DNA from: Dokdonia sp. Dokd-P16
GTDB lineage: Bacteria > Bacteroidota > Bacteroidia > Flavobacteriales > Flavobacteriaceae
Reading direction: 5' to 3'
NCBI RefSeq assembly: GCF_003095655.1
Contig: NZ_CP029151.1
Location: 2,851,001 to 2,915,000, forward strand
Length of the DNA stretch: 64,000 bases
The translations under genes were made by a program, and so were the position numbers. This document shows, one piece after another, positions 493 to 62,563 of the stretch (position 1 is its first letter; every line of letters begins with the position of its first letter). Under the pieces are notes generated by a model. That model ran no database searches. It was given only the letters and a program-made list of their open reading frames with translations, and was not told where the DNA came from.

Positions 493-506
493 GCTTTCGC
501 GAAAGC
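493..506. repeat. Iterated palindrome, full 14-mer, intergenic
   Basis: GCTTTCGCGAAAGC between the YbjQ gene and the broken TlpA gene. The left side extends to ACGC, the right side does not. Confidence 0.9.
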
Positions 507-555
507 AATAAATATTACATTGGTGGTTTTATGAAGACAACCAATCCTTTCTAAA

Positions 556-1908
556 TTACACCTTCGATGCATTTTCTATTGCCTGTTCAACCGCAATGGA
601 AGGTTCTTGGATATTGGCATTTATAATCTTACCATCTTTGCCAATGAGTATGTATTTAGGAATAAAGTTGATATTGTATTGTTGACCATATTCTTCACTT
701 CGTCCATCTTTAATAAATAAATTGTAACCAAGTTTTGAGTTTTCTTTACCTAAAAACTCTAGCCATTTCTCTTTAGAACTATCTACAGACATTAGCAAAA
801 TCTCTACATCGCTATTATTTTTATACTTATTAGCAAGTTCTAAAACATTATGCCTGTGATTAAGACAAGCCCTACACCATGTGGCCCAATTGTCTATAAA
901 AATTACTTTCCCTAGATGATCTTCAAGTTTATATTGATTTCCAGATGCATCTTCTGCTGTAAATAAGTAAGCTTTTTCTCCACTTTGAGAAGCATAAAAA
1001 GAGTTCGATGACTTTTCAAGTAAGTACTTGTATGGGTTTTCTTTTTCTGATATGAGGGCTTGAGTAAGTACCTCAGTGTTAAATAATCTCTCATGCTTTT
1101 CCCAATAAGTAGGTGATTCTATCAAACCTTTGATATAGCTCGCTCTGAGATAATCAGCAAGCTCCTTGTTACTCGTCTGTCTATCTATGAACGCTAAAAA
1201 ATCAGTAATACTTTCAATAGCATCATTTTCTCGCAAATATTCAATTTCATATTTGTAGAGATAAATATCGGGAAGAGATTTTGCTGATAGCGTAAGCTTC
1301 GGAATTCTATGGACGAAATCAAAATAGCTGTTATTTGGTTTTAATTCTTTCATTATTCTGCCATAATAGAATAGGAATGAATAAATTCTCGCATCATTCT
1401 GATAGTGTAGCAATTCTAAAATATTAGGGCCTATTTCACCCTTTAGTAAGTTAATGTTATTTGCTCTCTCCTGTCTGAAAGTTTTAAATACAAGCGGAAT
1501 TGTATCTATGTTATTAGAGCCAAAAAGTAAATTACTGTTTTCACTTATAAACTTGTTGTTGCTGTGCCATAGATAGTTGAGCAATGAATCTACTTTATCA
1601 TGAGTGTTTATAATACCATCTTGATTAAGAAAAATGTTTAAATTTTTATTATCAGCTAGAATAGCCAGATAGGGATCATCATTATTTTTGTGATTTATAG
1701 TTACTGCCGTAGGATGTGGCAAGTCTACAATTTGTATTCTGCTGCTATTTCAAATTTTAGCAATGAGCTTATCAGTATTAAATTCTGAAATATAGATGGT
1801 ATCTATAGAAGTCTCAGTTTGCAAACTTATTTGTGCAGGGTTGTTTTGGTTTTGACAGCCAACTAATGAACATATAACTACAACTAGTAAAAGACTTTTT
1901 AGATTCAT
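556..1908 (-). pseudogene. TlpA-like thioredoxin lipoprotein interrupted by an in-frame TGA
   Basis: The reading frame starts at ATG 1906-1908 with a textbook lipoprotein signal (MNLKSLLLVVVICSLVGC), runs to a TGA at 1750-1752, and continues in the same frame without any shift for about 397 more codons to the TAA at 556-558. The second part ends in a thioredoxin fold of the TlpA/AhpC-TSA type with the redox motif WATWCRAC (about residues 343-348 counted from the ATG). Without the stop it would be a 450-residue periplasm-facing disulfide oxidoreductase. The downstream part alone could only start at TTG 1720-1722, which lacks the signal peptide, so a functional shorter product is unlikely. The stop could be a real nonsense mutation or a sequencing error. 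Confidence 0.8.
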
Positions 1909-2012
1909 GCTTGTCTAAGTTTTGTAAATACTTAATTATTAAAGTACTAAATATACTTCTCGTCTATTTGTTTTACGAGTAATTAAACTTAAAACCTTAG
2001 GTTAATCTACGA

Positions 2013-2022
2013 TTTCGCGAAA
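2013..2022. repeat. Iterated palindrome, one-sided variant, intergenic
   Basis: TTTCGCGAAA core followed by GCGT on the right arm only; it lies between the broken TlpA gene and the pirin gene. Confidence 0.8.
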
Positions 2023-2063
2023 GCGTATTATAAAAACATGATAAACTTCTAAATAACCCGTGA

Positions 2064-2777: not shown

Positions 2778-2855
2778 AGGTGATAAATTAGGGAGTGAGT
2801 AGCTTTATTTTTGATGATAAAGTTACGATATGTGATTTTGTTTTTAAACGTATTT

Positions 2856-2879
2856 ATGACGCTTTCGCGAAAGCGTCAT
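2856..2879. repeat. Iterated palindrome, 24-bp perfect, intergenic
   Basis: The 14-mer at 2861-2874 is extended to a perfect 24-bp palindrome, the longest copy in the window. It lies 7 bp beyond the stop codon of the GreA/B-like gene, in the position of a transcription terminator, but no T-run follows it. Confidence 0.92.
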
Positions 2880-2886
2880 TCTATTT

Positions 2887-3390: not shown

Positions 3391-3395
3391 CTTCT

Positions 3396-5135
3396 TTATT
3401 TTTCGTTCTTCATTAAATCTATGCTGCGCTCAGACCAGCTTACAGTGCGGGGTCCAAAGCATTCTAAAATTGCATCTACACCTATCACACTTCCTTTAGA
3501 TAGTCTGCCTAATACCGCTAGTGGCACAAAACTTTTACCTTCAGGCACTTCTACATAACCATAATCGTCTGTGCGTATGCCTAGATCTGTATGTTTAGGC
3601 TCAATCATCTCGTTGTGTAGTAAGTTTTTTATAATTGGTGTATCTACCGTAACAAGTTGTGGAGAGTTTAGTACAGCATTAAGCATTACATCTACGGTAA
3701 TTTTTTTACCATCAGATTCAAGTTGCCAGCCTCCGTCTACACAAGTGATTGCTGGATTATTTACCAAGTTAAGATCTAACAATCCAGCTTTTGCAAGTGC
3801 AATAAGCTGTTGTATACTTTCAACTGGAGGACCGTAAGAATATCTTTTTGATGCTTCGTCTAGTGCAATAACTTCTGCCACCACATCATCTGCAATTTCT
3901 GGATATGAGAACTCTCTATAGATGGTAGGCTGGCAGTGTCGCCATACTTGCCCTATAACGTAGTCAAGGCTTACAGGTGCTTCTCCTACTGCCATTTCCA
4001 CTTGCTGTTGCATCATTTGTAATACCGGTTTTTGATGCGATAGGAGTAGGGGATGCGCTAGTGATTTATTGTTGAGGTAATTTATGCTTAAGAAATAAAC
4101 TTCCTCTTCAGATAAGTCGTGTGAAAGTGCCTTGTCTTCTAATCTTAAAAATAATGGAGCTACCACAGCTGCCATTGCCTCTAGCAAGAAATACTGATCT
4201 TTTGCTGGGTGATCGCCGCAGGCGCCTTGGTGTATCGCTTTCGCGAAAGCGTCTATAGTATCATCACTGGGCATAAACCACTTATCTACCGCTTTGTTTA
4301 TAGGTTTAGGCACCATAGGAAGCCCGTCTAATGAAAAGGGAACAAACCGCTGCGGATGGTTTTCTCCAGCGTGAAAAGCTACTTCTTTTGAATCATTATC
4401 AAGGATCTCGAAATGTGCACCGCGTTGCAAGGTAAGCGCACGTATCTGGTCTATCATAGCAAGCCCGAAACCTCGAAAAGCAACTACGCTCTCTGAAGTT
4501 ATGTTTGCTTGCATTATTTTTTCTACTGGGTATGCTTCTGTAAAGAGAATGGTGTTGTCTTTTTGCGCTACATGGTCTTGCCACTCTTGCAACTGATCTG
4601 AAAGTATCGTGTCTTGATGTCCTATCGTGAGGACTACTTCTTCTATTTGTTTTACAGATTGTGTTGATGTCTCTGCTGTAAAGTATGGCGCTACGTAAGT
4701 GAGTTCGTTTACGGTCTCTGTTATGGTTTCTAGCAATCCAAAACCATGAAGTGCCGCGGCGAGGACTTCAAAACGAGCATTAAGGTAGGTTCCCATTTTT
4801 GCCCGTGGAGGGAACTGGTCTGGATGTGTGGAAGGAGGGTTTTGTTGTTCTTTTGGTAACCATTCTGTATAAGAGGGAAATGCAGGGATGATATCATCAC
4901 CTAGTTTTATTTCTGGTCTGCCAGGCAAGTCTTGTAAGGCACGCTCAGTAATATTAAGCCAGTTATTTTCTACTTGTTCTGGATTCCACACCCATCCAGC
5001 ACCAGGATACTTAAATGGTTCAAATAAAGTGACTTTTATTTGAGCTTCTGGAGCGTTATTGTAAAGCGCAATAAAAAGACTTTCAAGAGCAAAAAGTCCT
5101 CTAGGACCTCCTCCTATTATGGCGTAGTGTTTCAT
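3396..5135 (-). CDS. FAD/NAD(P)-binding protein (NAD_binding_9 type)
   Basis: A 579-residue cytosolic flavoprotein-like enzyme. Residues 4-14 form a dinucleotide-binding glycine motif (YAIIGGGPRGLFALE), followed by an acidic end of strand two (TLFEPF) and a GAGWVWNPEQ segment typical of the NAD_binding_9 family, which resembles hydroxyacylglutathione- or lysine-monooxygenase-like flavoproteins. The substrate cannot be told. The iterated palindrome at 4236-4251 is read inside this gene as AFAKA. It heads a likely two-gene operon with the GreA/B-like gene. A TAGCTTTG promoter element lies 44 bp upstream. Confidence 0.75.
   Translation of the reverse strand: MKHYAIIGGGPRGLFALESLFIALYNNAPEAQIKVTLFEPFKYPGAGWVWNPEQVENNWLNITERALQDLPGRPEIKLGDDIIPAFPSYTEWLPKEQQNPPSTHPDQFPPRAKMGTYLNARFEVLAAALHGFGLLETITETVNELTYVAPYFTAETSTQSVKQIEEVVLTIGHQDTILSDQLQEWQDHVAQKDNTILFTEAYPVEKIMQANITSESVVAFRGFGLAMIDQIRALTLQRGAHFEILDNDSKEVAFHAGENHPQRFVPFSLDGLPMVPKPINKAVDKWFMPSDDTIDAFAKAIHQGACGDHPAKDQYFLLEAMAAVVAPLFLRLEDKALSHDLSEEEVYFLSINYLNNKSLAHPLLLSHQKPVLQMMQQQVEMAVGEAPVSLDYVIGQVWRHCQPTIYREFSYPEIADDVVAEVIALDEASKRYSYGPPVESIQQLIALAKAGLLDLNLVNNPAITCVDGGWQLESDGKKITVDVMLNAVLNSPQLVTVDTPIIKNLLHNEMIEPKHTDLGIRTDDYGYVEVPEGKSFVPLAVLGRLSKGSVIGVDAILECFGPRTVSWSERSIDLMKNEK
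4236..4251. repeat. Iterated palindrome, 16-bp, inside FAD/NAD(P) gene
   Basis: Full 14-mer with one extra pair on each side; read in the host gene as AFAKA. Confidence 0.9.
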
Positions 5136-5178
5136 AGGTTGGTTGTTATACTTAGACCTTTAAGAAAGGGAAGTATAA

Positions 5179-5186
5179 CAAAGCTA
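5179..5186 (-). promoter_or_regulatory. -7 promoter element TAGCTTTG
   Basis: On the minus strand this matches the Bacteroidota TAnnTTTG element, 44 bp before the start of the FAD/NAD(P) gene. No clear TTG is seen at the -33 distance. Confidence 0.4.
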
Positions 5187-5236
5187 TAAGATGACTAGCG
5201 CTTGCGTATAGAGTTTAAGATTGTGTTAGGAGTTAT

Positions 5237-7283: not shown

Positions 7284-7676
7284 CGTTGCAATTTCCGTAA
7301 AATAGTTTGAGTAGGTTGCTATTTTAATATTAGTTAACAGTGATAGTAGGGTGTTGAGGTGTTACGCTTTCGCGAAAGCGTAAAAATAAAATTGGTTTAC
7401 CCGTATTATGAGACTATTCCATATTGAAGAATTCTAATAACCCGATCTCACAAACGCTATATGTAAATTAAGAATTTCAAAATTAATAGATGCGCAAGGG
7501 TAAACAGACAATAATTTAAGAATCTCATCTTCTACAATCTAGGCCGTCAATATATTTTAACATTTTTTAAAAGTTGGCGTTAATTGTATGGTAAAAAGAA
7601 TATTTTCGCTAAAGCGTTTATAATAAAATCCAATTCTTTGCATTAAACGTATAACCATTAAAACAACTATTAAATT
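7284..7676. other. Intergenic region, 393 bp, divergent genes
   Basis: Between the divergent DUF2254 gene and the coiled-coil gene. It holds a 22-bp perfect iterated palindrome (7362-7383) and a decayed copy near 7605-7617 in which one base breaks the centre. No open reading frame with coding character, tRNA or recognised riboswitch was seen. Confidence 0.5.
7362..7383. repeat. Iterated palindrome, 22-bp perfect, intergenic
   Basis: Full 14-mer at 7366-7379 extended by four matched pairs on each side. Confidence 0.92.
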
Positions 7677-8558: not shown

Positions 8559-8583
8559 AAGAAACTTAAGTAGGTTAAGTAAG

Positions 8584-8622: not shown

Positions 8623-8651
8623 GTTATAAACGCTACTATTAAAATGTGTTT

Positions 8652-9507: not shown

Positions 9508-9969
9508 TTATTTGAGTGGTAATTCCATCTTAATATTCGCACGTTCGTAAGCCGAGTTTTCTTCGAGTGGAATTTCCTTAAAATCCCATTTTTTATAAAT
9601 ATAAATAGCATTTTCAAGCTTACGGTGTGAGTATAAAATGAGTTTGTTGAGATGTTGCGCTTTCGCGAAAGCGATACAATGTGCGATCAATTGCTGTCCA
9701 ATTCCCATCCCTCTAGCCGAAGGTGAGACTGCCATTTTTGTAAGTTCTAACACAGCAGTATTTCCAGTTGGCATAAGCGCTACCGTACCTAGAATTTGAT
9801 CATCTTTTGATGCAAAGAAGATAAAACCTCCTTTGTCAATGATGTATTCTTCGGGATTACTCAACACTTTGAGATCATAAGGCTCCACATAGAAAAAGGC
9901 CTCGAGCCATTCTATATTAAGAGTTTTAAAATCTGCAGCAAATTGAGAATTATATGGAATGATGTTCAC
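9508..9969 (-). CDS. GNAT family N-acetyltransferase
   Basis: A 153-residue GNAT acetyltransferase. The acetyl-CoA binding motif A is visible as LTKMAVSPSARGMGIGQQLIAHCI (about residues 75-98), followed by the KLILYSHRKLENAIYIYKKWDFKEI motif B. The acceptor is unknown. The gene starts inside the last 20 bp of hutG, so it is translationally coupled to the histidine operon; whether it acts in that pathway is open. The iterated palindrome at 9658-9673 is read here as AFAKA within the helix after motif A. Confidence 0.88.
   Translation of the reverse strand: MNIIPYNSQFAADFKTLNIEWLEAFFYVEPYDLKVLSNPEEYIIDKGGFIFFASKDDQILGTVALMPTGNTAVLELTKMAVSPSARGMGIGQQLIAHCIAFAKAQHLNKLILYSHRKLENAIYIYKKWDFKEIPLEENSAYERANIKMELPLK
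9658..9673. repeat. Iterated palindrome, 16-bp, inside GNAT gene
   Basis: Full 14-mer plus one pair; read as AFAKA. Confidence 0.9.
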
Positions 9970-10963: not shown

Positions 10964-10967
10964 GGTG

Positions 10968-11546: not shown

Positions 11547-12772
11547 AAAATGTCTCCGTTTACGATAAGGGTATCTATCTGGCTTTCGCCAAAATGATAA
11601 GGTATCGCATTATAAGAAGGTAGGGGTTTTGTGATTATTAAATTAGCTTTTTTTCCTTTGGTAATACTTCCAGTTTCGGCTGCTACGTCCATGGCAAAAG
11701 CGCCATTAATGGTGGCCGCTACAATTGCCTCTGCTGGTGTCATTCTTAAATTTATACAAGCCTGAGAGACCACAAAATTCATAGATGAACTAGGGGATGA
11801 ACCAGGATTATAATCTGTTGCAATCGCAAGTGGCAACCCAGCATCTATAATACTACGTGCTGGTGTATATGGTATATTCAGGAAGAAAGAACAGCCAGGC
11901 AATGCAACAGGTATCGTGGTTGAACCTTGTAAAGCCGATATATCAGCGTCTGTTAATTCTTCTAGATGATCTACAGAAAGTGCATTTAGAGCTACTGCTT
12001 TTTGGATACCGCCTATACTATTAAACTGATTGACGTGAACTTTTGCTTTGAGACCATGTGATTTTCCTGCCGTAACAATACTGTCCATTTCCTCAACTGT
12101 AAAATAGCCAGTCTCACAGAAAATATCTATAAAATCACACAAGCCTGCTTTCGCGAAAGCGGGAATCATCTCCTCTACAATTTCTTTGATATAGCCTTCT
12201 CGATTATGTATATAATTCTCAGGAAACGCATGTGCAGCAAGTAATGTAGCCTTAACAGGTATATTTACTTCTTTACGCAATCGTTGTATTACCTTGAGCA
12301 TTTTTAGTTCTGCATCTTTTGTAAGACCATAACCGGTTTTAATTTCAATAGCGCCAGTACCGCTTGCAATAGCAGTATTAAGTCTTACTAGGGCGTCTTT
12401 ATAAAGATCATCTTCACTCATCTCACGCAAGGTTCTTGCGCTATTTAATATTCCGCCGCCTTTGGTAGCAATTTCTTGATAGGTAAGACCTTTAATACGA
12501 TCTACAAACTCATCTTCGCGCGTTGCTGCATATACAAGATGTGTGTGTGAGTCACACCACATAGGGAGCACTATTTGTCCAGAGGCATCAATTACCTCCT
12601 CTACAGCTATAGGATGGAGGTCTTCCATAAGACCATATTCATAAATAAGATCTTCATCAATAACGAGGTATGCATTCTCGAGATAAGGCATTGCCTCCAT
12701 ATTTTTTCCAGATAGGGGAGTTGTAAAATCACCTGTTACAAGAAGCTGATGTATGTTTGTTATTAATTTCAT
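11543..12772 (-). CDS. hutI: Imidazolonepropionase
   Basis: A 409-residue amidohydrolase-superfamily enzyme that hydrolyses imidazolone-5-propionate to N-formimidoyl-L-glutamate in histidine degradation. The metal-binding DSHTHLVYA (His76, His78) follows the N-terminal beta-sandwich. The family motif GATTIEIKSGYG appears as GTGAIEIKTGYG, and later segments include HVNQFNSIGG and TDYNPGSSPSSSMNFV, both typical of HutI. It heads the operon hutI, transglutaminase-like, hutG, GNAT. hutH and hutU are not in this window. The palindrome at 12147-12160 is read as AFAKA. Confidence 0.95.
   Translation of the reverse strand: MKLITNIHQLLVTGDFTTPLSGKNMEAMPYLENAYLVIDEDLIYEYGLMEDLHPIAVEEVIDASGQIVLPMWCDSHTHLVYAATREDEFVDRIKGLTYQEIATKGGGILNSARTLREMSEDDLYKDALVRLNTAIASGTGAIEIKTGYGLTKDAELKMLKVIQRLRKEVNIPVKATLLAAHAFPENYIHNREGYIKEIVEEMIPAFAKAGLCDFIDIFCETGYFTVEEMDSIVTAGKSHGLKAKVHVNQFNSIGGIQKAVALNALSVDHLEELTDADISALQGSTTIPVALPGCSFFLNIPYTPARSIIDAGLPLAIATDYNPGSSPSSSMNFVVSQACINLRMTPAEAIVAATINGAFAMDVAAETGSITKGKKANLIITKPLPSYNAIPYHFGESQIDTLIVNGDIL
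12147..12160. repeat. Iterated palindrome, 14-mer, inside hutI
   Basis: Full 14-mer, read as AFAKA. Confidence 0.9.
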
Positions 12773-12961: not shown

Positions 12962-14137
12962 ATGAGTAAATCACATAAAGGCCTTAATACAATTTGTACA
13001 CATACAGGAGAGATTAAAGACGAGCAGTTTCAAGGAGCTGTATCTCCTATTTATTTATCATCTTCTTATGCCTTTATGGATGTAGATGTAAAGCGCTACC
13101 CTCGCTATTTTAATACTCCTAATCAAGAAGGATTAAGCAAGAAAATTGCAGCCCTTGAGAAGACAGAGGCTGGGATGATCTTTGGTAGTGGTATGGCGGC
13201 AGTAAGTACTGCATTGCTGGCTTTTTTGAGAAGTGGCGACCATGTTGTGCTTCAAGAAACATTATATGGAGGTACGTATAACCTAGTGGTAGAGGAGTTT
13301 GAGAAGTACGGTATTACGTATTCTTTTACGGAGGATTTGAGTGAGGCCGCTTTCGCGAAAGCGATAACTCCACAAACTAAAGTGATTTACATTGAGACGC
13401 CTTCTAATCCACTTATGAAGGTTACAGACATGAAGATGGTTGCTGCACTTGCCAAAAAGCACGGCATTGTGACCATGATTGATAATACGTTTGCCTCTCC
13501 GGTAAACCAGAATCCAGCAGATTTTGGGATTGATATTATACTTCACTCTGCGACAAAATATATGGGAGGGCACAGTGACATCTGTGCAGGAGCAATTGCT
13601 GCGAGTCAAGAACATATGGATCGCATCTGGGGTCTAGCAAAAAATCTAGGAGGAAGTCTAAGTGACCTAACCGTATGGATGCTTGAACGCAGTATGAAGA
13701 CCATGGCATTACGTGTAAAAGCACAAAATAGAAATGCAAAGAAAATAGCCAAATGGCTTGATAAGAAAGACGAAATAAGCCGCGTGTACTATCCAGGGTT
13801 AAAATCTCATCCAGACTACAAACTTGCCAAAAAGCAGATGAGCGGTTTTGGAGGGATGATGTCTTTTGAACTTGCAGCACATATTGATGCCGAAGATTTT
13901 CAAAAAGCACTACAACTTATCAAACCTTCTATGAGTCTAGCGGGTGTAGAGAGCACCATGCTTTGTCCAGCACAAACTTCGCATTCATTACTAGGAGAAG
14001 AAGAACGAGCAAAACAAGGTATCGCAGATGGATTAATTCGCTTTTCTGTAGGAATAGAGGAGAAGGAAGACCTCATGGAAGATATCGATCAAGCGCTAAA
14101 GGCAGTATTAAAAAAGACAGTACTAGTTGCGGATTAA
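12962..14137 (+). CDS. Trans-sulfuration PLP enzyme (cystathionine/methionine gamma-lyase type)
   Basis: A 391-residue Cys/Met-metabolism PLP enzyme. The cofactor lysine is Lys199 in SATKYMGGHSD, with Asp174 in MIDNTFASP to hold the pyridine ring and the phosphate-binding FGSGMAA at about 74-80. The family includes cystathionine gamma-synthase, cystathionine gamma-lyase, methionine gamma-lyase and O-acetylhomoserine sulfhydrylase. The overall form is closest to the gamma-lyases, but the substrate cannot be fixed from the sequence. It is monocistronic as far as visible. The palindrome at 13348-13363 is read as AFAKA. Confidence 0.85.
   Translation: MSKSHKGLNTICTHTGEIKDEQFQGAVSPIYLSSSYAFMDVDVKRYPRYFNTPNQEGLSKKIAALEKTEAGMIFGSGMAAVSTALLAFLRSGDHVVLQETLYGGTYNLVVEEFEKYGITYSFTEDLSEAAFAKAITPQTKVIYIETPSNPLMKVTDMKMVAALAKKHGIVTMIDNTFASPVNQNPADFGIDIILHSATKYMGGHSDICAGAIAASQEHMDRIWGLAKNLGGSLSDLTVWMLERSMKTMALRVKAQNRNAKKIAKWLDKKDEISRVYYPGLKSHPDYKLAKKQMSGFGGMMSFELAAHIDAEDFQKALQLIKPSMSLAGVESTMLCPAQTSHSLLGEEERAKQGIADGLIRFSVGIEEKEDLMEDIDQALKAVLKKTVLVAD
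13348..13363. repeat. Iterated palindrome, 16-bp, inside PLP lyase gene
   Basis: Full 14-mer plus one pair; read as AFAKA. Confidence 0.9.
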
Positions 14138-16856: not shown

Positions 16857-16870
16857 GCTTTCGCGAAAGC
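16857..16870. repeat. Iterated palindrome, 14-mer, intergenic
   Basis: Between the M28 peptidase gene start and the dnaN terminator. Confidence 0.9.
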
Positions 16871-18204: not shown

Positions 18205-19899
18205 CTAGCGTGTGTAACGACGTTTCCTAATTGCGTTGTAGATGAGTCCAAAGATAAACAAAATAGCTAGCGGAAGCCCAATAGTCAAGACTTGCCACGT
18301 GCTCATACTTTGTGCCGTCTTTTTCATATCAAGAAAAGGAAGCGCAATTTCTTTACTACGTATGTTAATAAGCCCAGTGTCATCAAGGAGATAGTTAATC
18401 GCATTGAGCAAAAACTCCTTATTCCCATAGCTGGTTCTTGTATAATAATCAAATCCTAATTCTAGTGGTTGCCCGCGTGCATCAAGATTATTTGAGATTA
18501 TATCACCATCTGCTATGAGTATAAGCTTAGGATTTTTTTGTGCGCTTTCGCGAAAATTACTTTTATCACTTCCATCTGGTAATACTCTATTAGTAAAAGC
18601 CGAATGAAACGAGCCTTCTAGCAAAACGGCCAGTGGTTGTTGCCCATTTTGAAAATCACTTTCTAAAGGTTCAATATCTACCTGACCGAGAGAGATTTCT
18701 CGTGGCGTGCTTTCTATTTTAGTATAAATACTAGACTGCAATAAGACTATTTTATTTACGCCACTATTATTATCTAATAAGGTGATAGGATTTGCATAAT
18801 TGAAAAGAACAGGCTTTTCAATATTAGTATTGATGGGGTTTGTGTTCATACTAGGTACTTGTGGTCTATATAACCATGGCAACTGTATATATTGAGCATC
18901 ACTGCCATCACCAGAGGCAACACTAAGTGGGGCAGAGTAGAGGTCTACTACTAAGGATGGGTCTACTCTAATCCCGTATTTAAAAAGTTGGTCATCTAGA
19001 TTAATATCTCTAGGGAAGGCAATAGTTTTACCTTGATCATTGCGCAGGCTATCATCTTCCATAGCTACAGCATCTAGCATCCAAAGGCTGTTACCGCCAT
19101 TCATGATATATTGATCAATCACATACTTCTGCTTGTCTGTAAATGCTTTTGTAGGCTTTGCAATAACTACTAGATCAAAGGTGTTTTGTAACGCTTTGAG
19201 TGCTTTATCTGGATCTTGATTTGCAAATTCCATTGGGAAAGGTGCAATATTGTAAGTGTCACCTAGTTTACGGAACATATCTGCAATATTTGCATCTGGT
19301 AGCTCTCCATTATCTCTCAATACTGCAATACGCTTAGACTTTGCATTTAATGTGCTGTGTAAACTTTCGGCAAAGACGTATTCAAGGTTTTGTATTGAGG
19401 CATATACGAGTTGCTCTGGAGAAGCACCTACTACATTCTTTACAAGTCCTACTGGTACAGCCTTGACATTGAAATTTATAGTAGCCCAAGGAAAAATAGT
19501 TTGCGTGGTCTCCTTTCCATTTTCTTTTACTTTGAGAGGAATGGTGGTCATCCCAAACTCATTGAATTGACCCGCAACTTCGGCTACATTTTCCCCTTCT
19601 TCTACTGGGTTTGAAAATTCGAACCTAATGTTATCATTATAGGCTTGCATTTCCTCTAGCAGGTAGCGCGTCTCGTTTTGAAGTTTCTTAAACTCCGCAG
19701 GAAAATTACCTTCTAGAAAAACATCAATAATCAGCGGACTGTCAATCTGATCTAATAAATCAAGCGTAGGATTACTTAAACTGTAGCGTTGATCTTGTGT
19801 TAGGTCATAGCGTTTGTGAACTAGCGAACCTATAACGTTAATTATAAATAGGCCGATAATTACAAGAAGAAGTGATAGTATGTATTTTAAATTTTTCAC
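18205..19899 (-). CDS. gldG: Gliding motility ABC transporter substrate-binding protein GldG
   Basis: A 564-residue GldG. It has an N-terminal membrane segment (about residues 7-25), a large extracytoplasmic domain with the typical YDLTQDQRYSLSNPT start and NGGNSLWMLDAV segment, and a C-terminal membrane segment (about 535-555, VLTIGLPLAILFIFGLIYNAI) followed by RKRRYTR. GldA, GldF and GldG form an ABC complex needed for gliding in some Flavobacterium species. The start codon overlaps the gldF stop by 4 bp. A one-sided palindrome copy at 18546-18555 is read as FRES. Confidence 0.93.
   Translation of the reverse strand: MKNLKYILSLLLVIIGLFIINVIGSLVHKRYDLTQDQRYSLSNPTLDLLDQIDSPLIIDVFLEGNFPAEFKKLQNETRYLLEEMQAYNDNIRFEFSNPVEEGENVAEVAGQFNEFGMTTIPLKVKENGKETTQTIFPWATINFNVKAVPVGLVKNVVGASPEQLVYASIQNLEYVFAESLHSTLNAKSKRIAVLRDNGELPDANIADMFRKLGDTYNIAPFPMEFANQDPDKALKALQNTFDLVVIAKPTKAFTDKQKYVIDQYIMNGGNSLWMLDAVAMEDDSLRNDQGKTIAFPRDINLDDQLFKYGIRVDPSLVVDLYSAPLSVASGDGSDAQYIQLPWLYRPQVPSMNTNPINTNIEKPVLFNYANPITLLDNNSGVNKIVLLQSSIYTKIESTPREISLGQVDIEPLESDFQNGQQPLAVLLEGSFHSAFTNRVLPDGSDKSNFRESAQKNPKLILIADGDIISNNLDARGQPLELGFDYYTRTSYGNKEFLLNAINYLLDDTGLINIRSKEIALPFLDMKKTAQSMSTWQVLTIGLPLAILFIFGLIYNAIRKRRYTR
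18546..18555. repeat. Iterated palindrome, one-sided variant, inside gldG
   Basis: TTTCGCGAAA with GC on the left arm only; read as FRES. Confidence 0.8.
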
Positions 19900-28548: not shown

Positions 28549-29271
28549 TTATCTTGTTTTGTCGTATTTACTATTCCATATCGCTTTGTTAAAGTTCTTA
28601 CCTAATGCAAATGCATAAAATAGTACTACCGCTCCGATGGATTTAAACATAAAGAAAAATACCATAATATCTTGACCAAAATCCTGATTCTTTGCAAAAA
28701 GACCGTCTGGGGTTAACAGCGTAGCGATGAAGCTGATAAGTACTGTCGTGATTATTAAGTTCTCGACAGACTTAAATGACCATGCCCATTGCTTTCTAAA
28801 AGGATTAAGATCATTACCCCACTGGTGTATTAGATAGTAATATCCATTACCCATAGGTGCAAATAATAATGGGTCATCTGCTTTTTCTAATACAAACATT
28901 TTTGAAGGAGCAATGATTTTAAAACCATCAAGCTCCGTGTGATGTGTGTTTTCTAGGTATTTGATATTATCCAGTACTTCTTGAGGATATTTTCCTTTAA
29001 AGTATTTGGTATCGAGAAAACGTAGTCTGTAGTCTACGCAAATTTTCTCTATTTGTTTAATGTGGAAGATTTTTGAGGTTTCAAGTAAGTCAAAGTCAAA
29101 CTCGTTATAACCTGCCTCAGAAGCTCCGTTTAGGGTTTTGAGGATTCCGCTTTCGCGAAAGCGGTCTTGATCAAAAACCTGTTGTACTTGTGCTAGGATA
29201 TCTTGTTCTTGCTCACTTTTACTGCGCTCACGAAGTAACTTATCGTAAATGTTGGTTCTGGATAATAGCAT
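28549..29271 (-). CDS. Hypothetical membrane protein, 240 residues
   Basis: I do not recognise this protein by name. The N-terminal ~165 residues are soluble, including an acidic stretch and a LEKADDPLLFAPMGNGYYYLIHQWG segment. Two membrane segments follow (about 170-188 and 205-225). It lies 17 bp upstream of the DUF2007 gene on the same strand, and both have a soluble N-terminus with two C-terminal membrane segments, so they may work together. The palindrome at 29147-29164 is read as FRES. Confidence 0.65.
   Translation of the reverse strand: MLLSRTNIYDKLLRERSKSEQEQDILAQVQQVFDQDRFRESGILKTLNGASEAGYNEFDFDLLETSKIFHIKQIEKICVDYRLRFLDTKYFKGKYPQEVLDNIKYLENTHHTELDGFKIIAPSKMFVLEKADDPLLFAPMGNGYYYLIHQWGNDLNPFRKQWAWSFKSVENLIITTVLISFIATLLTPDGLFAKNQDFGQDIMVFFFMFKSIGAVVLFYAFALGKNFNKAIWNSKYDKTR
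29147..29164. repeat. Iterated palindrome, 18-bp, inside hypothetical membrane gene
   Basis: Full 14-mer extended by two C-G pairs; read as FRES. Confidence 0.9.
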
Positions 29272-35591: not shown

Positions 35592-37688
35592 ATGAAATAC
35601 CTATTCCTATTTGTAATCACTTGTTGCGCTTTCGCGAAAGCGTATGCTCAAGATATATCTCCACAAACCGCTACTGTTGATTTTAAGACTATCGACGCGT
35701 CCTTGTCCTTAGATTTTGACAGTAAATCCGTTTTGGGATCCATTGAAACCACCTTTACGATATTACAAAATGTAGATCAAGTAGTCATGGATGGCGTCGC
35801 AATGAAAGTCGTAGATAAAACACCGTCAATCACTGTAACCGCTACAGATACTACCATTGTTCTCAAAGGGAAATTTAAGGCGGGAACGACATACAAAGCC
35901 CAATTCGATTATCAAGTAAAACCATCACAGGCTGCTTATTTTGTGAATAATAATGGAAAAGAAGAATTCTGGACGCAAGGACAAGGTAAGTACACATCAC
36001 ACTGGTTGCCAAGTATAGATGATATGAATGACAAAATCGTTTTTGACTTAAAAGTAGCTGGACATAATAGCAAGACGATTATTGCAAATGGAAAAGGCAA
36101 TAGAGTTTTTAAGGATTATGGTGCTCTATTTTCTTCTTTTGATATGCAACAGCCTATTTCTAGCTATCTCGTTGCCCTCGTAGCAGGAGATTACGCTATG
36201 AAGAGCGAGACTGCTAGTTCTGGAGTTACATTGGAATATTATTACCGTCCTGAAGATTCGCTCAAAGTCGAGACTACTTATAAACACTCTAAAGAGATTT
36301 TTGACTTCTTAAAAACCACGATTGGAGTGCCGTTTCCTTTTCAAGATTATAAGCAAGTTCCCGTAAAGGATTTTCTTTATGCAGGGATGGAAAATGCAAG
36401 CCTCACTGTGTTTTCAGATAGTTTTATGGTGGATGAGATAGGCTTTACAGATCGAAATTATGTCAATGTAAACGCACATGAGCTGGCGCATCAATGGTTT
36501 GGAGATTTAGTGACAGAAACAAAAAGTGAGCATCACTGGCTCCATGAAGGTTTTGCTACGTACTACGCACTGCTAGCAGAGCGTGAGATTTTTGGAGATG
36601 ATTATTTTTACTTTAAGCTCTTTGAAACCGCAGAGCAACTGCGTGAGCTTAGCGATATGGGAGAAGGGCAGAGGCTCGTCGCCGCTGGAGGTAGTAGCCT
36701 CACGTATTATCAGAAAGGTGCATGGGCAGTGCACATACTAAGAGAACAAGTAGGTGCTGGAGCTTTTGATACTGCAGTAAGAAACTACCTGACTAAGTAC
36801 GCTTATAAAAACGTCACTACAGACCTATTTATGGCAGAAGTGGCCGCAGTAACAAGCGTGGATCTCACTGCATTTAAGAAAAACTGGTTGTACCAAACAG
36901 CTTTTCAAGCTGAGGAAGCGCTTGCTTCCCTCAAGGAAAACACATTCATGCAGCAGTATTTCCAATTGCAGTCGGGTAGAGCAGTGGCGCTCTCTTCTAA
37001 GTTTACAGCGCTTATGAATGCCATAGCTACAAATAACGATTATCTAGGGGCAGAGGCAATCTACCAACTCTCACAAGAATCCATAAATGCTACGCTTCCG
37101 GCATACAAACGCGCCATGGAAACAGAGAATGTGTTTATAAGACAAGCTATTGCTAGTTCGCTAGAGACCGTTCCAGAAGCGCTGGTACTTGAATTTTATG
37201 AGTTGCTTAGTGACAGAAGTTATGTCACTCGAGAGCAGGCTATGATTAAGCTGTGGGTATATCACCAGCAACGCAATGATCCTACATCGCAACGCAAGGT
37301 TCTTAATCTTATGGATAATCAGATGGGGTTTGCAGATGGCAATATAAGAACGCTGTGGCTTGCGTTATCACTAGCTACACCACAATATAAACCCGAAGCG
37401 TCATTAGCCCGTTATAAAGAGCTTATAAGTTATACGGCGCCATCTCAACCATATCAGCTTCGGGAGAATGCTTTTAACTATATAAGACAGCTAGGCTCTT
37501 ATGAGGAAGAAAGCTTACATAATCTTATAGAAGCTAGTGTTCATCACGTTTGGCGTTTTCGCGAAAGCGCAAGGAAGCTACTTGACAATGAGCTCAAAAA
37601 TCCAAAAATAGCCGCTATGCTTATAAATATAAAAAGCGACCTCTCAGAACAAGAAATCGCTTATTTAAAACGTATAAAGGCGTTATAG
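35592..37688 (+). CDS. M1 family aminopeptidase
   Basis: A 698-residue exported metallopeptidase. The signal peptide (cleavage after AYAQ, about residue 20) is followed by the M1 N-terminal beta domain, the substrate motif AGMENAS (about 264-270) and the zinc motif HELAH (His296, Glu297, His300) with Glu319 in WLHEGFATYY. The C-terminal part is helical. It removes N-terminal residues from peptides in the periplasm. The full palindrome at 35627-35642 encodes part of the signal peptide (AFAKA), and a one-sided copy at 37557-37566 is read as FRES near the C-terminus. Confidence 0.92.
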   Translation: MKYLFLFVITCCAFAKAYAQDISPQTATVDFKTIDASLSLDFDSKSVLGSIETTFTILQNVDQVVMDGVAMKVVDKTPSITVTATDTTIVLKGKFKAGTTYKAQFDYQVKPSQAAYFVNNNGKEEFWTQGQGKYTSHWLPSIDDMNDKIVFDLKVAGHNSKTIIANGKGNRVFKDYGALFSSFDMQQPISSYLVALVAGDYAMKSETASSGVTLEYYYRPEDSLKVETTYKHSKEIFDFLKTTIGVPFPFQDYKQVPVKDFLYAGMENASLTVFSDSFMVDEIGFTDRNYVNVNAHELAHQWFGDLVTETKSEHHWLHEGFATYYALLAEREIFGDDYFYFKLFETAEQLRELSDMGEGQRLVAAGGSSLTYYQKGAWAVHILREQVGAGAFDTAVRNYLTKYAYKNVTTDLFMAEVAAVTSVDLTAFKKNWLYQTAFQAEEALASLKENTFMQQYFQLQSGRAVALSSKFTALMNAIATNNDYLGAEAIYQLSQESINATLPAYKRAMETENVFIRQAIASSLETVPEALVLEFYELLSDRSYVTREQAMIKLWVYHQQRNDPTSQRKVLNLMDNQMGFADGNIRTLWLALSLATPQYKPEASLARYKELISYTAPSQPYQLRENAFNYIRQLGSYEEESLHNLIEASVHHVWRFRESARKLLDNELKNPKIAAMLINIKSDLSEQEIAYLKRIKAL
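35627..35642. repeat. Iterated palindrome, 16-bp, inside signal-peptide codons
   Basis: Full 14-mer plus one pair; read as AFAKA just before the signal-peptide cleavage site of the M1 aminopeptidase. Confidence 0.9.
37557..37566. repeat. Iterated palindrome, one-sided variant, inside M1 gene
   Basis: TTTCGCGAAA with GC on the right arm; read as FRES. Confidence 0.8.
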
Positions 37689-38207: not shown

Positions 38208-38294
38208 ATAAGTAGGTTCTTGTTGCTATGTTCTGGATGAATAACAAACTTACTTGCTTTTTAGTATGCAACCAAATGGGATGTGATTATTCGC

Positions 38295-38304
38295 TTTCGC
38301 GAAA
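38295..38304. repeat. Iterated palindrome, one-sided variant, intergenic
   Basis: TTTCGCGAAA with CGC on the left arm only, between the small membrane protein and the MFS gene. Confidence 0.8.
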
Positions 38305-39780: not shown

Positions 39781-39800
39781 TACGCTTTCGCGAAAGCGTA
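39781..39800. repeat. Iterated palindrome, 20-bp perfect, intergenic
   Basis: Full 14-mer at 39784-39797 extended by three pairs on each side. Confidence 0.92.
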
Positions 39801-40504: not shown

Positions 40505-40524
40505 TACGCTTTCGCGAAAGCGTA
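40505..40524. repeat. Iterated palindrome, 20-bp perfect, intergenic
   Basis: Full 14-mer at 40508-40521 extended by three pairs on each side. Confidence 0.92.
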
Positions 40525-43660: not shown

Positions 43661-43680
43661 TACGCTTTCGCGAAAGCGTA
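43661..43680. repeat. Iterated palindrome, 20-bp perfect, intergenic
   Basis: Full 14-mer at 43664-43677 extended by three pairs. It is the last copy before a 9.5-kb stretch without any. Confidence 0.92.
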
Positions 43681-53215: not shown

Positions 53216-53225
53216 TTTCGCGAAA
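53216..53225. repeat. Iterated palindrome, one-sided variant, intergenic
   Basis: TTTCGCGAAA followed by GCGT; first copy after the 9.5-kb gap, upstream of the Crp/Fnr gene. Confidence 0.8.
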
Positions 53226-53261
53226 GCGTTCTACACCCACAATGCTATAAACGCCTACTGG

Positions 53262-55211: not shown

Positions 55212-55784
55212 ATGGCTCAGAAAAAAAGATTTAGTTGGCAAAATATAGTGTTCATCATTGTGATTCTCCTGCTTATTATTCCGCAGACGAGGACTCCTAT
55301 TCAAGTGGCAATAAATAAGGTGAAGGTGGCGATTTTTTCTCCGTCCGCTTTCGCGAAAAAGGACCAAACTCAACTCCAGTCTTTTGATTATAAAGTAAGC
55401 TCGCTTGAAGGAATCCCAGTCGAAGTAGGCGTAGGGAAGGGCAAAGTCACTTTTATAAGTTACTGGGCAACCTGGTGCCCTCCGTGTATTGCCGAACTAC
55501 CATCTATAGCCGAACTGCATGCAGATTATGGAGATAAAATGACGTTCTTGCTCATCACAAACGAAGATCCTGAAGTAGTCAAAAAGTTTATGATCAAAAG
55601 AGAGCTAGACCTCCCAGCAGTACTACCTGCGATGGAAACACCGGAGCTACTTTTTGAACGCTCGATACCTACGAGTTACATCATAGATCAAGAAGGAAAT
55701 ATTGTGGTGAAAGAAACAGGCGCCTCAAACTGGAATAGCGACAGCATAAGAACCATTATAGACAACCTACTCGCCAAAGATTAA
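55212..55784 (+). CDS. TlpA-like membrane-anchored thioredoxin
   Basis: A 190-residue protein with an N-terminal anchor (about residues 9-28, IVFIIVILLLIIPQ) and a thioredoxin domain with SYWATWCPPCIAEL (Cys89, Cys92) and SIPTSYIIDQEGNIV. It should reduce disulfides in the periplasm. The start ATG 55212 lies after the terminator hairpin; an earlier in-frame ATG at 55167 lies inside the hairpin and is rejected. A one-sided palindrome at 55349-55358 is read as AFAKK. Confidence 0.88.
   Translation: MAQKKRFSWQNIVFIIVILLLIIPQTRTPIQVAINKVKVAIFSPSAFAKKDQTQLQSFDYKVSSLEGIPVEVGVGKGKVTFISYWATWCPPCIAELPSIAELHADYGDKMTFLLITNEDPEVVKKFMIKRELDLPAVLPAMETPELLFERSIPTSYIIDQEGNIVVKETGASNWNSDSIRTIIDNLLAKD
55349..55358. 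repeat. Iterated palindrome, one-sided variant, inside TlpA gene
   Basis: TTTCGCGAAA with CGC on the left arm; read as AFAKK. Confidence 0.8.
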
Positions 55785-60468: not shown

Positions 60469-60483
60469 CAAAAAATAAACGTC

Positions 60484-60768
60484 ATGAACACATCAAATCA
60501 AAAAACCAAGTACGACAGAGCACAAGCAAAAGTAAGTGAGCTTAAAGAATTTTATAACCACCTAGGGACCTACCTCATCTTTGTATGTTTCTTCTTAATA
60601 TTAAACTTTTATACCACAGGTTTTTTCTGGGCTATATTTCCTATCGCAGGTTGGGGGATCGGGATACTAAGTCATGCTGCAAAGACCTTTGGCTGGAATC
60701 CTTTCTTTTCAAAAGATTGGGAAAAACGTAAGATAGATGAGTACATTCGTAACGAGGACTTTAAATAA
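60484..60768 (+). CDS. 2TM domain protein 1
   Basis: A 94-residue protein of the 2TM family: YDRAQAKVSELKEFYNHL, two membrane segments (about residues 28-46 and 50-66) and the end motif WEKRKIDEYI. In Flavobacteriia 2TM domains often sit at the N-terminus of sensor histidine kinases that pair with LytTR response regulators; here the domain stands alone. First of three adjacent 2TM genes, 6 bp before the next. Confidence 0.88.
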   Translation: MNTSNQKTKYDRAQAKVSELKEFYNHLGTYLIFVCFFLILNFYTTGFFWAIFPIAGWGIGILSHAAKTFGWNPFFSKDWEKRKIDEYIRNEDFK

Positions 60769-60774
60769 AATAAC

Positions 60775-61086
60775 ATGGAAACACAGAAAGAAAAGTATCA
60801 AAGAGCTACAGAACATGTGCAAAATGTTAAGAAATTTTATGGCAAGATTATCAATGCTATTATCGTTTCGGCTATTGTTGCAGCTATAAATTACTATGTT
60901 AATGAGTTTCGCAATCCGTGGGTATTGTGGGTAATTGGCTTCTCTTTACTAGGTATCGTTATTGAAGCTATCAAGCTATATGGTATCAACTTTTTTTTAG
61001 GCAAGGGATGGGAGCAACGTAAAATACAAGAGCATTTAAAAAAGGAAGAAAACGAATCGCAGTCTAATACACTATTTAAGAAATAA
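60775..61086 (+). CDS. 2TM domain protein 2
   Basis: A 103-residue 2TM protein: YQRATEHVQNVKKFYGKI, membrane segments at about 25-42 and 50-68, and WEQRKIQEHLKKEE at the end. Its stop shares one base with the start of the third 2TM gene. Divergent from its neighbours in sequence but clearly paralogous. Confidence 0.88.
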   Translation: METQKEKYQRATEHVQNVKKFYGKIINAIIVSAIVAAINYYVNEFRNPWVLWVIGFSLLGIVIEAIKLYGINFFLGKGWEQRKIQEHLKKEENESQSNTLFKK

Positions 61087-61430
61087 TGGAATCAAATACA
61101 AGTAAATACGAACGCGCAAAAAAACGTGTAGAAGAAGAGAAAGGGTTTTACAGGCATCTCACGGTTTATCTTGTGATAAACATCCTGCTGCAATTATTCT
61201 ACTCGGGGATGTTCTTTAACTTCGATGTGCTGGGTAATGCTCCTTGGTGGGTACGTTATACAACACCATTTTTCTGGGGATTATCGCTGCTAGTACATTG
61301 GATTTATGTTTTTAAAGGATTCCGCTTCTTTAAAGGATTAAAGAAATGGGAAGATCGCAAGATTCAAGAGTTTATGGATCAAGAGGAAGAAGAGTTTTCA
61401 AACCGCTTTCGCGAAAACAGGAACTCATGA
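61086..61430 (+). CDS. 2TM domain protein 3
   Basis: A 114-residue 2TM protein: YERAKKRVEEEKGFYRHLTVYL, membrane segments at about 22-44 and 60-80, and WEDRKIQEFMDQEEEE. Its stop overlaps the amidohydrolase start by 4 bp (ATGA). The one-sided palindrome at 61407-61416 is read as FREN. Confidence 0.88.
   Translation: MESNTSKYERAKKRVEEEKGFYRHLTVYLVINILLQLFYSGMFFNFDVLGNAPWWVRYTTPFFWGLSLLVHWIYVFKGFRFFKGLKKWEDRKIQEFMDQEEEEFSNRFRENRNS
61407..61416. repeat. Iterated palindrome, one-sided variant, inside 2TM gene
   Basis: TTTCGCGAAA with CGC on the left arm; read as FREN. Confidence 0.8.
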
Positions 61431-62563
61431 TACGTACGCTGTTTATCTTACTATTGCTGGGCTTCTACACAGTGAGCGCGCAACAAAGCTTTGTAGTAGA
61501 ACATGTAACCTTATTTAACGGCACCGAAATCTTAGCAAATCAATTTGTAAAAGTAGAAAAAGGAACCATCAGCGAGGTGTCTTCAAATGCACTTACTGCG
61601 CAGACTACCATAGACGGCACTGGGAAGTTTTTAATGCCAGCATTAATAAATGCTCATGTTCACACGTGGGCAGCACCGCAACTACAAGAAGCAGCCCAAG
61701 CAGGTGTTCTCAATCTGCTAGACATGCACGGCATGGAACCTATGCAAGAGGCAATGATTAATCTGCGAGATACACAGGGCAATGCTAGATTGTATCGCGC
61801 AGGATATGCAGCTACCACAGAAGGTGGTCACGGTACGCAATACGGTTTTCCTATTCCTACACTTTCTAAGCCAGAAGATGCTGCACAATGGGTTGCAGAT
61901 CGTGTAGCAGCGGGAGTCGACTACATAAAAATTATTGTCGAACCTTGGAAAGCTACACTTGATAGAGAAACGGTAGCGGCTATTATTAAAGAAGCACATA
62001 AGGCAGATAAAATAGCGGTAGTTCACGTTTCACGAGCACAAGATGCTTTTGATGCTCTCTCTAGTGGTGCAGATGGTCTCGTGCATATTTATAATGATGC
62101 GCCTCTCACAGCAGCACAGCTCGCCATACTTAAGGAAGATGCAAACTTCTTTGTGATACCTACCATACTCACCACAGTATTGATTCAGCCTTTGTACTAC
62201 AATAAAACAGCGGAAGAAACTGCCGAAATAGAAACGCGTCTCATCAAGGAAGTTAAGCGCTTATACGATGCAGGAATTCCGATACTAGCAGGTACGGATC
62301 CGCCAAATGCCAATATTAATATAGGCAGCGATTTGTATAAAGAATTGGCTTTTTTCGCGAAAGCGGGATTACCCATAGAAGCAGTGCTCGCGAGTGCCAC
62401 CTCATTACCAGCAGATAAGTTTTCTCTAGAGAACGTAGGTTATATAAAAGAAGGCTTTAAAGCAGATATGTTATTGCTTGATAAATCTCCTGTTGAAGAT
62501 GTATTAAACATGAACTCGATAGCCAAAATCTGGAAAGAGGGCGTGCTTATCACACAAGAATAA
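61427..62563 (+). CDS. Exported amidohydrolase
   Basis: A 378-residue amidohydrolase-superfamily enzyme with a signal peptide (MIRTLFILLLLGFYTVSAQ). The metal motif is LINAHVHTWA, with a Lys in DYIKIIVEPWK and a late AGTDPPNAN giving the bridging Lys and final Asp. Relatives include imidazolonepropionase-like and prolidase-like enzymes; the substrate is unknown. The start at ATG 61427-61429 overlaps the stop of the last 2TM gene, so it is coupled to the 2TM operon. The one-sided palindrome at 62353-62362 is read as FFAKA. Confidence 0.87.
   Translation: MIRTLFILLLLGFYTVSAQQSFVVEHVTLFNGTEILANQFVKVEKGTISEVSSNALTAQTTIDGTGKFLMPALINAHVHTWAAPQLQEAAQAGVLNLLDMHGMEPMQEAMINLRDTQGNARLYRAGYAATTEGGHGTQYGFPIPTLSKPEDAAQWVADRVAAGVDYIKIIVEPWKATLDRETVAAIIKEAHKADKIAVVHVSRAQDAFDALSSGADGLVHIYNDAPLTAAQLAILKEDANFFVIPTILTTVLIQPLYYNKTAEETAEIETRLIKEVKRLYDAGIPILAGTDPPNANINIGSDLYKELAFFAKAGLPIEAVLASATSLPADKFSLENVGYIKEGFKADMLLLDKSPVEDVLNMNSIAKIWKEGVLITQE
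62353..62362. repeat. Iterated palindrome, one-sided variant, inside amidohydrolase gene
   Basis: TTTCGCGAAA with GCG on the right arm; read as FFAKA. Confidence 0.8.

What the first reader, a model, noticed from the sequence alone, without database searches (positions are those of the whole stretch)
493..62362. Highly iterated palindrome GCTTTCGCGAAAGC/TTTCGCGAAA
I counted 24 copies of TTTCGCGAAA, 16 of them as the full 14-mer, where chance predicts far less than one 14-mer in 64 kb. Copies extend up to a 24-bp perfect palindrome (2856-2879). Eleven of 24 are intergenic although most of the window is coding. They are not associated with transposase genes, do not cluster, and most lack a T-run, so they are neither an insertion element nor plain terminators. 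Comparable cases elsewhere are cyanobacterial HIP1 and DNA-uptake sequences. The role here (methylation target, nucleoid or segregation protein site, uptake signal) is open.
Basis: partly seen in the sequence, partly recalled or inferred. Interest (0 to 1): 0.85.

Follow-up and report, generated by a model that had tools for sequence, protein, structure and literature searches.

The report
Evenly spaced palindromic genome address tag
A marine bacterium of the genus Dokdonia and two other groups of its family carry hundreds of copies of one exact short DNA palindrome, spaced out along the chromosome and kept in place over long evolutionary times, most likely a tag by which the cell recognises its own kind of DNA.

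Summary
GCTTTCGCGAAAGC occurs 808 times in the 3.62-Mb Dokdonia chromosome (reversed control 0). In 561 kb of it, all 164 TTTCGCGAAA have GC on at least one side. Sites avoid each other (own gaps <1 kb: 17, permuted 38.4; G242: 1, permuted 16.6). In a relative at 76.6% DNA identity 21 of 23 are intact, against 10.5% of random 10-mers. High density: 5 of 249 family genomes, 3 of 235 genera. Mismatch decay resembles uptake sequences; coding copies sit in variable peptides. They are not terminators as a class, and none of three DNA-methyltransferase families is common to the seven carriers tested. Efflux-gene islands and a temperate phage carry it too. Best reading: a self-DNA recognition sequence kept by drive, most likely a palindromic uptake signal for natural transformation (0.45); a Chi-like or chromosome-organising site remains possible. 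The reading protein was not found. No paper describing the motif as iterated turned up.

The parts
493..506 (.). palindrome, full 14-mer, intergenic
2013..2024 (.). half site TTTCGCGAAAGC, intergenic
2856..2879 (.). longest perfect palindrome in the window (24 bp) around a full site, intergenic; the one copy in 1-20000 that is terminator-like
4237..4250 (.). full 14-mer, coding, read as AFAKA
7366..7379 (.). full 14-mer (22-bp palindrome), intergenic
9659..9672 (.). full 14-mer, coding (AFAKA), conserved in G533
12147..12160 (.). full 14-mer inside hutI (AFAKA); absent at this place in G533
13349..13362 (.). full 14-mer, coding (AFAKA), conserved in G533
16857..16870 (.). full 14-mer, intergenic
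18544..18555 (.). half site, coding (FRES); G190 and G533 have a full site at the same codons
23080..23093 (.). full 14-mer, intergenic, conserved in L031
25571..25584 (.). full 14-mer, coding (FRES), conserved in L031 and L032, half site in G190
29149..29162 (.). full 14-mer, coding (FRES), conserved in three other Dokdonia loci
32433..32446 (.). full 14-mer, coding (FRES); replaced without length change in L033
35628..35641 (.). full 14-mer inside the N-terminal signal-like peptide MKYLFLFVITCCAFAKAYAQ of an M1-type peptidase
37557..37568 (.). half site, coding (FRES); full in L031 and G206
38293..38304 (.). half site, intergenic
39784..39797 (.). full 14-mer (20-bp palindrome), intergenic
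40508..40521 (.). full 14-mer (20-bp palindrome), intergenic
43664..43677 (.). full 14-mer (20-bp palindrome), intergenic; the next site is 9.55 kb away, across an Eco57I-like R-M pair
53216..53227 (.). half site, intergenic
55347..55358 (.). half site in a thioredoxin-like ORF (SAFAKK)
61405..61416 (.). half site at the 5' end of an amidohydrolase ORF (coding or just upstream)
62353..62364 (.). half site, coding (FFAKA)

Best explanation
The palindrome is a self-DNA recognition sequence that works like the DNA-uptake sequences of Pasteurellaceae and Neisseriaceae. A protein that binds (GC)TTTCGCGAAA(GC), probably as a dimer needing at least one complete half, favours import or recombination of DNA fragments that carry one. 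Fragments with a site enter the chromosome more often, so sites spread by molecular drive into permissive places (gaps between genes, signal peptides, variable loops) until every stretch of a few kb has one; a second site nearby brings no gain, so sites end up evenly spaced. Shown: the exact sequence, over-representation, repulsion, positional conservation, permissive placement, lineage pattern, mismatch profile. Inferred: that a receptor reads it, that the process is transformation, and that drive keeps it.
For: 808 copies. Repulsion in all four genomes sampled: gaps <1.5 kb observed/permuted: own 28/53.9, G533 9/26.8, G242 2/23.9, G190 6/16.5. Even spacing of known uptake sequences is reported (after Karlin) in PMC1939737 (passages). 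Mismatch profile of the 10-mer, O/E at 0, 1, 2 mismatches: 751, 2.9, 0.9; PMC1939737 Table 1 gives about 184, 3.0, 1.2 for H. influenzae and 393, 5.8, 1.7 for N. gonorrhoeae (table values plus 1; expectation models differ). Conservation 21 of 23 against 10.5%. Identity of the protein 3-12 residues from a coding site is 0.35 against 0.64 elsewhere (G190, 11 proteins). ComEC (PF03772) in 14 of 14 genomes searched, and DUF5689 (PF18942) with a large ORF directly upstream in 20 of 20, own genome included. In Riemerella such genes are essential for transformation (PMC8459023, section 19), and R. columbina prefers its own DNA (PMC7965970, passages).
Against: The reading protein is unknown. ComEC and the DUF5689 pair are equally present in genomes without the motif, and the pair does not track it: G206 and G000 both carry the motif, yet their DUF5689 proteins are 46% identical, while those of G000 and motif-free G045 are 51% identical; for the upstream (presumed outer-membrane) protein one clade of carriers is rejected (p-AU 0.003). 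That the upstream ORF is the Riemerella outer-membrane gene was inferred from arrangement, not searched. Known uptake sequences are not palindromes (PMC1939737). A temperate phage carries 5 sites in 30.6 kb, which an intracellular function would explain at least as well. Competence of Dokdonia was not shown, and one search found no paper on it among the 12 listed of 1,301.
Confidence: 0.45

Rival explanations
1. Chi-like or nuclease-protection site: an intracellular recombination/repair enzyme (AddAB- or RecBCD-like) stops degrading linear DNA at the palindrome, in either direction, so every few kb of self DNA needs one.
For: Needs a site every few kb and hence gives repulsion; explains why a temperate phage and mobile islands carry it; one site per 3-6 kb is close to Chi density in E. 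coli (1008 Chi in about 4.64 Mb in PMC1939737, passages).
Against: Known Chi sites are asymmetric (recalled); orthologous sites are kept more strictly than I would expect of individually weak sites (inference). No AddAB/RecBCD comparison was made.
Confidence: 0.2
2. Binding site of a chromosome-organising protein that bridges or loops DNA at regular intervals.
For: Perfect dyad symmetry, even spacing, positional conservation, sites all round the chromosome.
Against: 20 stretches around the chromosome show no trend (1-6 per 16 kb; one-wave fit R2 0.07, 2675 of 5000 permutations as high), unlike Noc, MatP or SlmA sites (recalled); G242/G010 are carriers although genera closer to Dokdonia by RecG are not; presence in a phage and in islands needs a second cause.
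Confidence: 0.15
3. HIP1-type site made or used by an orphan DNA methyltransferase (Elhai model).
For: Like HIP1: palindrome, hundreds of copies, single deviations mostly at the outer bases (6 of 8; PMC4390886 abstract).
Against: Of 7 carrier genomes, 5 lack PF00145, 5 lack PF01555, 4 lack PF02086; the own genome lacks all three. Type I/IIG families (PF02384, PF07669) were not searched genome-wide; the window itself holds an Eco57I-like pair.
Confidence: 0.08
4. Transcription terminators or regulatory sites.
For: 6-8 times denser between genes in the two Dokdonia sampled (own 1.37 against 0.167, G533 1.48 against 0.238 per kb); palindromes of at least 20 bp are mostly intergenic (20 against 4); the 24-nt copy at 2856 folds well as RNA (-11.6 kcal/mol, z -4.1) and is terminator-like; in G533 convergent gaps are densest (2.44 per kb, 6 sites).
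Against: No such preference in the larger own sample (convergent 1.0, divergent 1.16, same direction 1.57 per kb) or in G190; in G190 79 of 91 copies are coding; the plain 14-mer folds no better than shuffles (-1.9 kcal/mol, z 0.05); 1 of 10 copies in 1-20000 is terminator-like.
Confidence: 0.02
5. Mobile repeat (MITE or REP-like element) or its relic.
For: Many copies; some coding copies are extra residues against G190.
Against: Only 10-16 bp are shared; 5 of 6 aligned present/absent cases among Dokdonia loci have no gap; copies repel each other.
Confidence: 0.02

Closest known systems
DNA uptake sequences (USS of Pasteurellaceae, DUS of Neisseriaceae)
   Same: About 10-12 exact bases, hundreds of copies or more, even spacing, similar mismatch profile, excess outside genes, lineage-specific
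   Different: Here a perfect palindrome; in Bacteroidota, where Riemerella transforms without detectable pilus homologs (PMC8459023, passage); uptake not tested; phage and islands carry it
HIP1 (GCGATCGC) of cyanobacteria
   Same: Perfect palindrome, hundreds of copies, deviations at the outer bases (PMC4390886 abstract and passages)
   Different: 10-14 bp instead of 8; no common methyltransferase found in three families; spacing of HIP1 not compared here
Chi recombination sites
   Same: One per few kb (1008 in E. coli)
   Different: Chi is asymmetric (recalled); enzyme side not examined
Noc/ParB, MatP or SlmA binding sites
   Same: Palindromic protein sites scattered on the chromosome (recalled)
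   Different: Those number tens and are biased along the chromosome (recalled); this motif is flat

Membership tests
DNA uptake sequence (USS/DUS) | Strong over-representation of an exact short sequence | tested here: met
   808 14-mers, 0 reversed control; O/E 751 for the 10-mer
DNA uptake sequence (USS/DUS) | Spacing more even than random | tested here: met
   four genomes; weakest in G190 for gaps <500 (56 of 1000 permutations as low) and in own for gaps <250 (73 of 2000)
DNA uptake sequence (USS/DUS) | Excess falling with mismatch load | tested here: met
   against PMC1939737 Table 1
DNA uptake sequence (USS/DUS) | Host has a transformation machinery | tested here: inconclusive
   ComEC and the DUF5689 pair are present in the own genome; DprA, ComF and activity not tested; non-carriers have them too
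DNA uptake sequence (USS/DUS) | Preferential uptake of DNA with the sequence | not testable with these tools
   needs an experiment
DNA uptake sequence (USS/DUS) | A receptor that covaries with the sequence | tested here: inconclusive
   DUF5689 and its upstream protein do not track the motif; other candidates not tried
HIP1 | Palindrome at very high copy number | tested here: met
HIP1 | Conserved orphan methyltransferase for an inner sequence | tested here: not met
   PF00145, PF01555, PF02086 missing in 5, 5 and 4 of 7 carriers; other families not searched
HIP1 | Sequence GCGATCGC or a described alternate HIP | tested here: not met
   different sequence; TTTCGCGAAA has 0 occurrences in the text of PMC4390886
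Chi site | Stops exonuclease action of RecBCD/AddAB | not testable with these tools
   no assay; enzymes not searched
Intrinsic terminator | Stable hairpin plus U-run at gene ends | tested here: not met
   as a class; the copy at 2856-2879 does meet the scan's criteria
MITE/REP mobile repeat | Longer conserved element, insertion footprint | tested here: not met
   no gap in 5 of 6 present/absent cases; flanks unrelated

The most novel reading that the evidence does not exclude
A palindromic self-DNA address tag in Bacteroidota, spaced every 3-6 kb by drive, read by an unknown component of the pilus-free competence system of Flavobacteriaceae; the tag was lost or regained more than once in the family and now also rides on temperate phages and efflux-gene islands, letting them pass as self DNA.
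Probability: 0.35. Interest if true: 0.87.

Novelty: new variant of a known kind. Interest (0 to 1): 0.72.

Why it matters
Short genomic uptake sequences are known from Pasteurellaceae and Neisseriaceae (PMC7811141, abstract start in the listing); Campylobacter jejuni instead recognises methylated DNA (PMC8468864, abstract start in the listing). A palindromic case in marine Bacteroidota would show that the strategy evolved again with different machinery, and would link to the own-DNA preference reported for Riemerella columbina. It gives a ready test: DNA with and without the 12-mer in a harmless marine Dokdonia. Even if the role is intracellular, hundreds of strictly kept, evenly spaced palindromes point to an undescribed DNA-binding protein. 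The tag also works as a tracer: clusters of it in other genera mark DNA that probably came from carriers.

Tried and rejected
Terminator, regulatory site and mobile repeat: rejected as a class, see rivals. Orphan methyltransferase: three Pfam families searched in 20 genomes each, none common to the 7 carriers. DUF5689 protein or its upstream partner as the sequence reader: trees and identity tables do not follow the motif; the DUF5689 tree has only 4 of 17 inner branches well supported. Single origin against several: the RecG tree does not decide (one clade of carriers p-AU 0.065; G190 next to Dokdonia with 87/77 support). Shared orthologous coding sites (G190 4 of 13, G242 1 of 9) against 0 of 140 ortholog alignments from non-carriers over 8 own sites suit either shared descent or repeated choice of the same permissive peptide. 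One search had a few carrier loci in its 'non-carrier' database; one search repeated it without them and gave the same counts. My early thought that one-mismatch forms are absent was wrong: they are about 3 times over expectation. Relics in G042 and G144 (scattered, mostly half sites): 25 and 29 forms with at most one mismatch, not enough to prove decay. Other iterated 10-mers in loci of relatives: one scored as high as the palindrome, GCTACGACAC six times in L078 (Aquimarina), but it belongs to a longer one-direction repeat 0.7-1.6 kb apart. The window R-M pair in other Dokdonia: undecided, one search printed no hit for it nor for two neighbouring control genes in the fetched loci. Paper PMC8034619, which holds the 10-mer, lists it inside words missing from the human genome (passages), not as an iterated motif. 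One search failed by a script error and was rerun.
Full report
OBSERVATION. All 24 TTTCGCGAAA and 16 GCTTTCGCGAAAGC reported are present, with 0.05 and 0.00 expected in shuffles. The window lies in a 3,623,447-bp single-contig genome. It holds 808 copies of the 14-mer and none of the reversed control, and 937/944 (forward/reverse) of the 12-mer GCTTTCGCGAAA, control 2/0.

ANATOMY. I sampled 561 kb of the chromosome (window plus 29 stretches). It holds 164 TTTCGCGAAA: 124 with GC on both sides, 40 on one side, 0 on neither. In G242 the split is 96, 6, 0 (of 102), in G533 66, 9, 0 (of 75), in G190 65, 22, 4 (of 91). So the unit is a 10-bp palindrome with GC on at least one side; intergenic copies are more often longer palindromes (at least 20 bp: 20 intergenic, 4 coding). 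In coding copies the reading frame gives AFAKA, FRES or LSRK. One copy makes part of the signal-like peptide CCAFAKAYAQ of an M1-type peptidase (35628-35641). Gene calls for the counts come from my own simple caller and misplace some starts; with longer starts own density is 0.167 per kb coding and 1.369 per kb intergenic. In G190 the two are nearly equal (0.158 and 0.202).

SPACING. In a continuous 237-kb block 78 sites have gaps of mean 3055, s.d. 1610, minimum 421 bp. Mean density is one site per 3.4 kb (own), 2.9 (G533), 4.1 (G242) and 6.2 (G190). Against sites dealt out at random within 16-kb bins, close pairs are missing in all four genomes: gaps under 1 kb observed/expected 17/38.4 (own), 7/18.9 (G533), 1/16.6 (G242), 5/11.3 (G190; 16 of 1000 permutations as low). 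For gaps under 250 bp own shows 5 against 10.5 (73 of 2000 permutations as low), so a few close pairs exist. Twenty stretches around the chromosome hold 1 to 6 sites per 16 kb without trend. I infer that the benefit belongs to a stretch of a few kb, not to the single site.

CONSERVATION. In 72 kb aligned with G533 (the genome of L031) at 76.6% identity, 21 of 23 own sites are intact, and 21 of 22 G533 sites; random 10-mers 1073 of 10,196, palindromic or two-CpG 10-mers 192 of 1413. Among 75 own coding sites, those with an alignable ortholog in the fetched stretches keep the site in 14 of 16 (G533), 4 of 7 (G206), 1 of 3 (G535), 4 of 13 (G190) and 1 of 9 (G242) cases. Orthologs from non-carriers: 0 of 140 alignments over 8 own sites. 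Of 6 present/absent cases among Dokdonia loci, 5 are replacements without gaps (some are the same place in two loci); some coding copies are extra residues against G190, for example L132_601 and L132_12405. Own sites lie in variable protein parts: identity 3-12 residues away 0.35 against 0.64 elsewhere (G190, 11 proteins), 0.43 against 0.59 (G242, 8), 0.53 against 0.63 (non-carriers, 6).

WHO CARRIES IT. Of 249 genomes of the family, 5 are at high density: own 937, G206 (same genus) 977, G010 585 and G242 679 (one genus), G190 482; the other 244 have at most 23 (forward counts). Four further Dokdonia genomes have 794-970. In 80 named RecG loci only the 4 Dokdonia hold the 14-mer; three others hold one 10-mer each. 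In 296 genomes across the phylum 16 have any 14-mer and only the own genome more than 4. RecG identity to own: G206 87, G076 79 (23 copies), Planktosalinus lacus G042 78 (17), G190 77, G242/G010 65-66 (the name of G042 rests on a 100% match). In the RecG tree G190 falls next to Dokdonia with weak support (87/77), G242/G010 far away. So at least G242/G010 are separated from Dokdonia by closer non-carriers; repeated loss or repeated gain are both open.

ISLANDS AND PHAGES. In some non-carriers the copies cluster. In G076, 19 of 23 forward matches lie in C3:32-119 kb, two more further along C3 and two on other contigs; that stretch holds about one site per 4 kb, as a carrier does. G051 is similar, mainly on two contigs, whereas G042 and G144 have scattered, mostly half sites. 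Stretches from G215, G087, G101, G078 and G012, five genera, share a module (about 75-96% DNA identity in the longer matches) that in G087 holds an AcrB-type efflux pump, an outer-membrane efflux protein and an AraC-type regulator. I read this as DNA that came from carriers (inference). A 30.6-kb phage contig with integrase, SieB and terminase holds 5 sites 4-8 kb apart. A search with the portal protein found 5 contigs, the query's own included, all 99-100% identical, hence one phage group, with 2-3 sites in each fetched piece. So this is one phage group, not an unbiased survey.

MECHANISM. The mismatch profile of the 10-mer (O/E 751, 2.9, 0.9 at 0, 1, 2 mismatches; G242 1430, 2.6, 0.8; G190 124, 3.3, 1.3) has the shape published for uptake sequences (PMC1939737, section 5), and even spacing and excess outside genes are reported for them too (same paper, passages). 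Riemerella, placed in Flavobacteriaceae by its authors, has a transformation system without pilus homologs (PMC8459023, section 19 and passages), and Riemerella columbina prefers its own DNA, with no uptake sequence established (PMC7965970, passages). The own genome has ComEC and DUF5689 with a large ORF directly upstream, which by arrangement I take for the outer-membrane partner. Against it: these genes are in non-carriers as well, neither protein of the pair tracks the motif, known uptake sequences are not palindromes, and the phage fits an intracellular role at least as well. Hence 0.45 for uptake, 0.2 for a Chi-like site, 0.15 for chromosome organisation.

METHYLATION. PF00145 is missing in 5, PF01555 in 5 and PF02086 in 4 of 7 carriers, and all three in the own genome. 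Type I/IIG families were not searched genome-wide. The HIP1 model is weakened, not excluded.

PRINT. Five spellings of the motif in full text gave 34 papers, 25 of them listed; by title they do not concern an iterated motif, and the one with most hits treats words missing from genomes (passages). Searches for Dokdonia with methylome (0 papers), palindromes in Flavobacteria (20 of 30 listed), iterated palindromes (20 of 21 listed) and Dokdonia with competence (12 of 1,301 listed) showed no report of it. Only open-licence papers are held.

Noticed in passing
window 47124-51884: Two adjacent Eco57I-like restriction-modification proteins (M.Eco57I C-terminal domain; Eco57I/N6_Mtase/HSDR_N) sit in the longest gap between palindromes in the window (43.7-53.2 kb); probably an acquired R-M system.
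   Followed up: partly
L111-L115, L119, L120; G076:C3:32000-119000: An efflux-gene island shared between genera carries the palindrome at carrier density, with two copies 933 bp apart in G101, G078, G215, G087, G160 and G076.
   Followed up: partly
L255, L428-L431, L222 (IMG/VR contigs): A temperate phage group with integrase and SieB carries the palindrome inside head and other genes, 4-8 kb apart.
   Followed up: partly
loci (L404-L423): DUF5689 proteins of the presumed transformation gene pair come in sequence subtypes that cut across Dokdonia (G206 against G000, G533, G535).
   Followed up: no
L078 13565-18087; also L076, L067: In Aquimarina loci a longer repeat around GCTACGACACATATATTAAACGTT recurs in one direction every 0.7-1.6 kb (six copies in L078), reminiscent of a gene-cassette array (recalled resemblance).
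   Followed up: no
L130 (own chromosome 1-16000) and L136: Two stretches with one palindrome each hold giant ORFs (3210 and 2508 aa).
   Followed up: no
L149 12182 and 12414: Two half sites 232 bp apart with nearly identical flanks look like a small local duplication.
   Followed up: no
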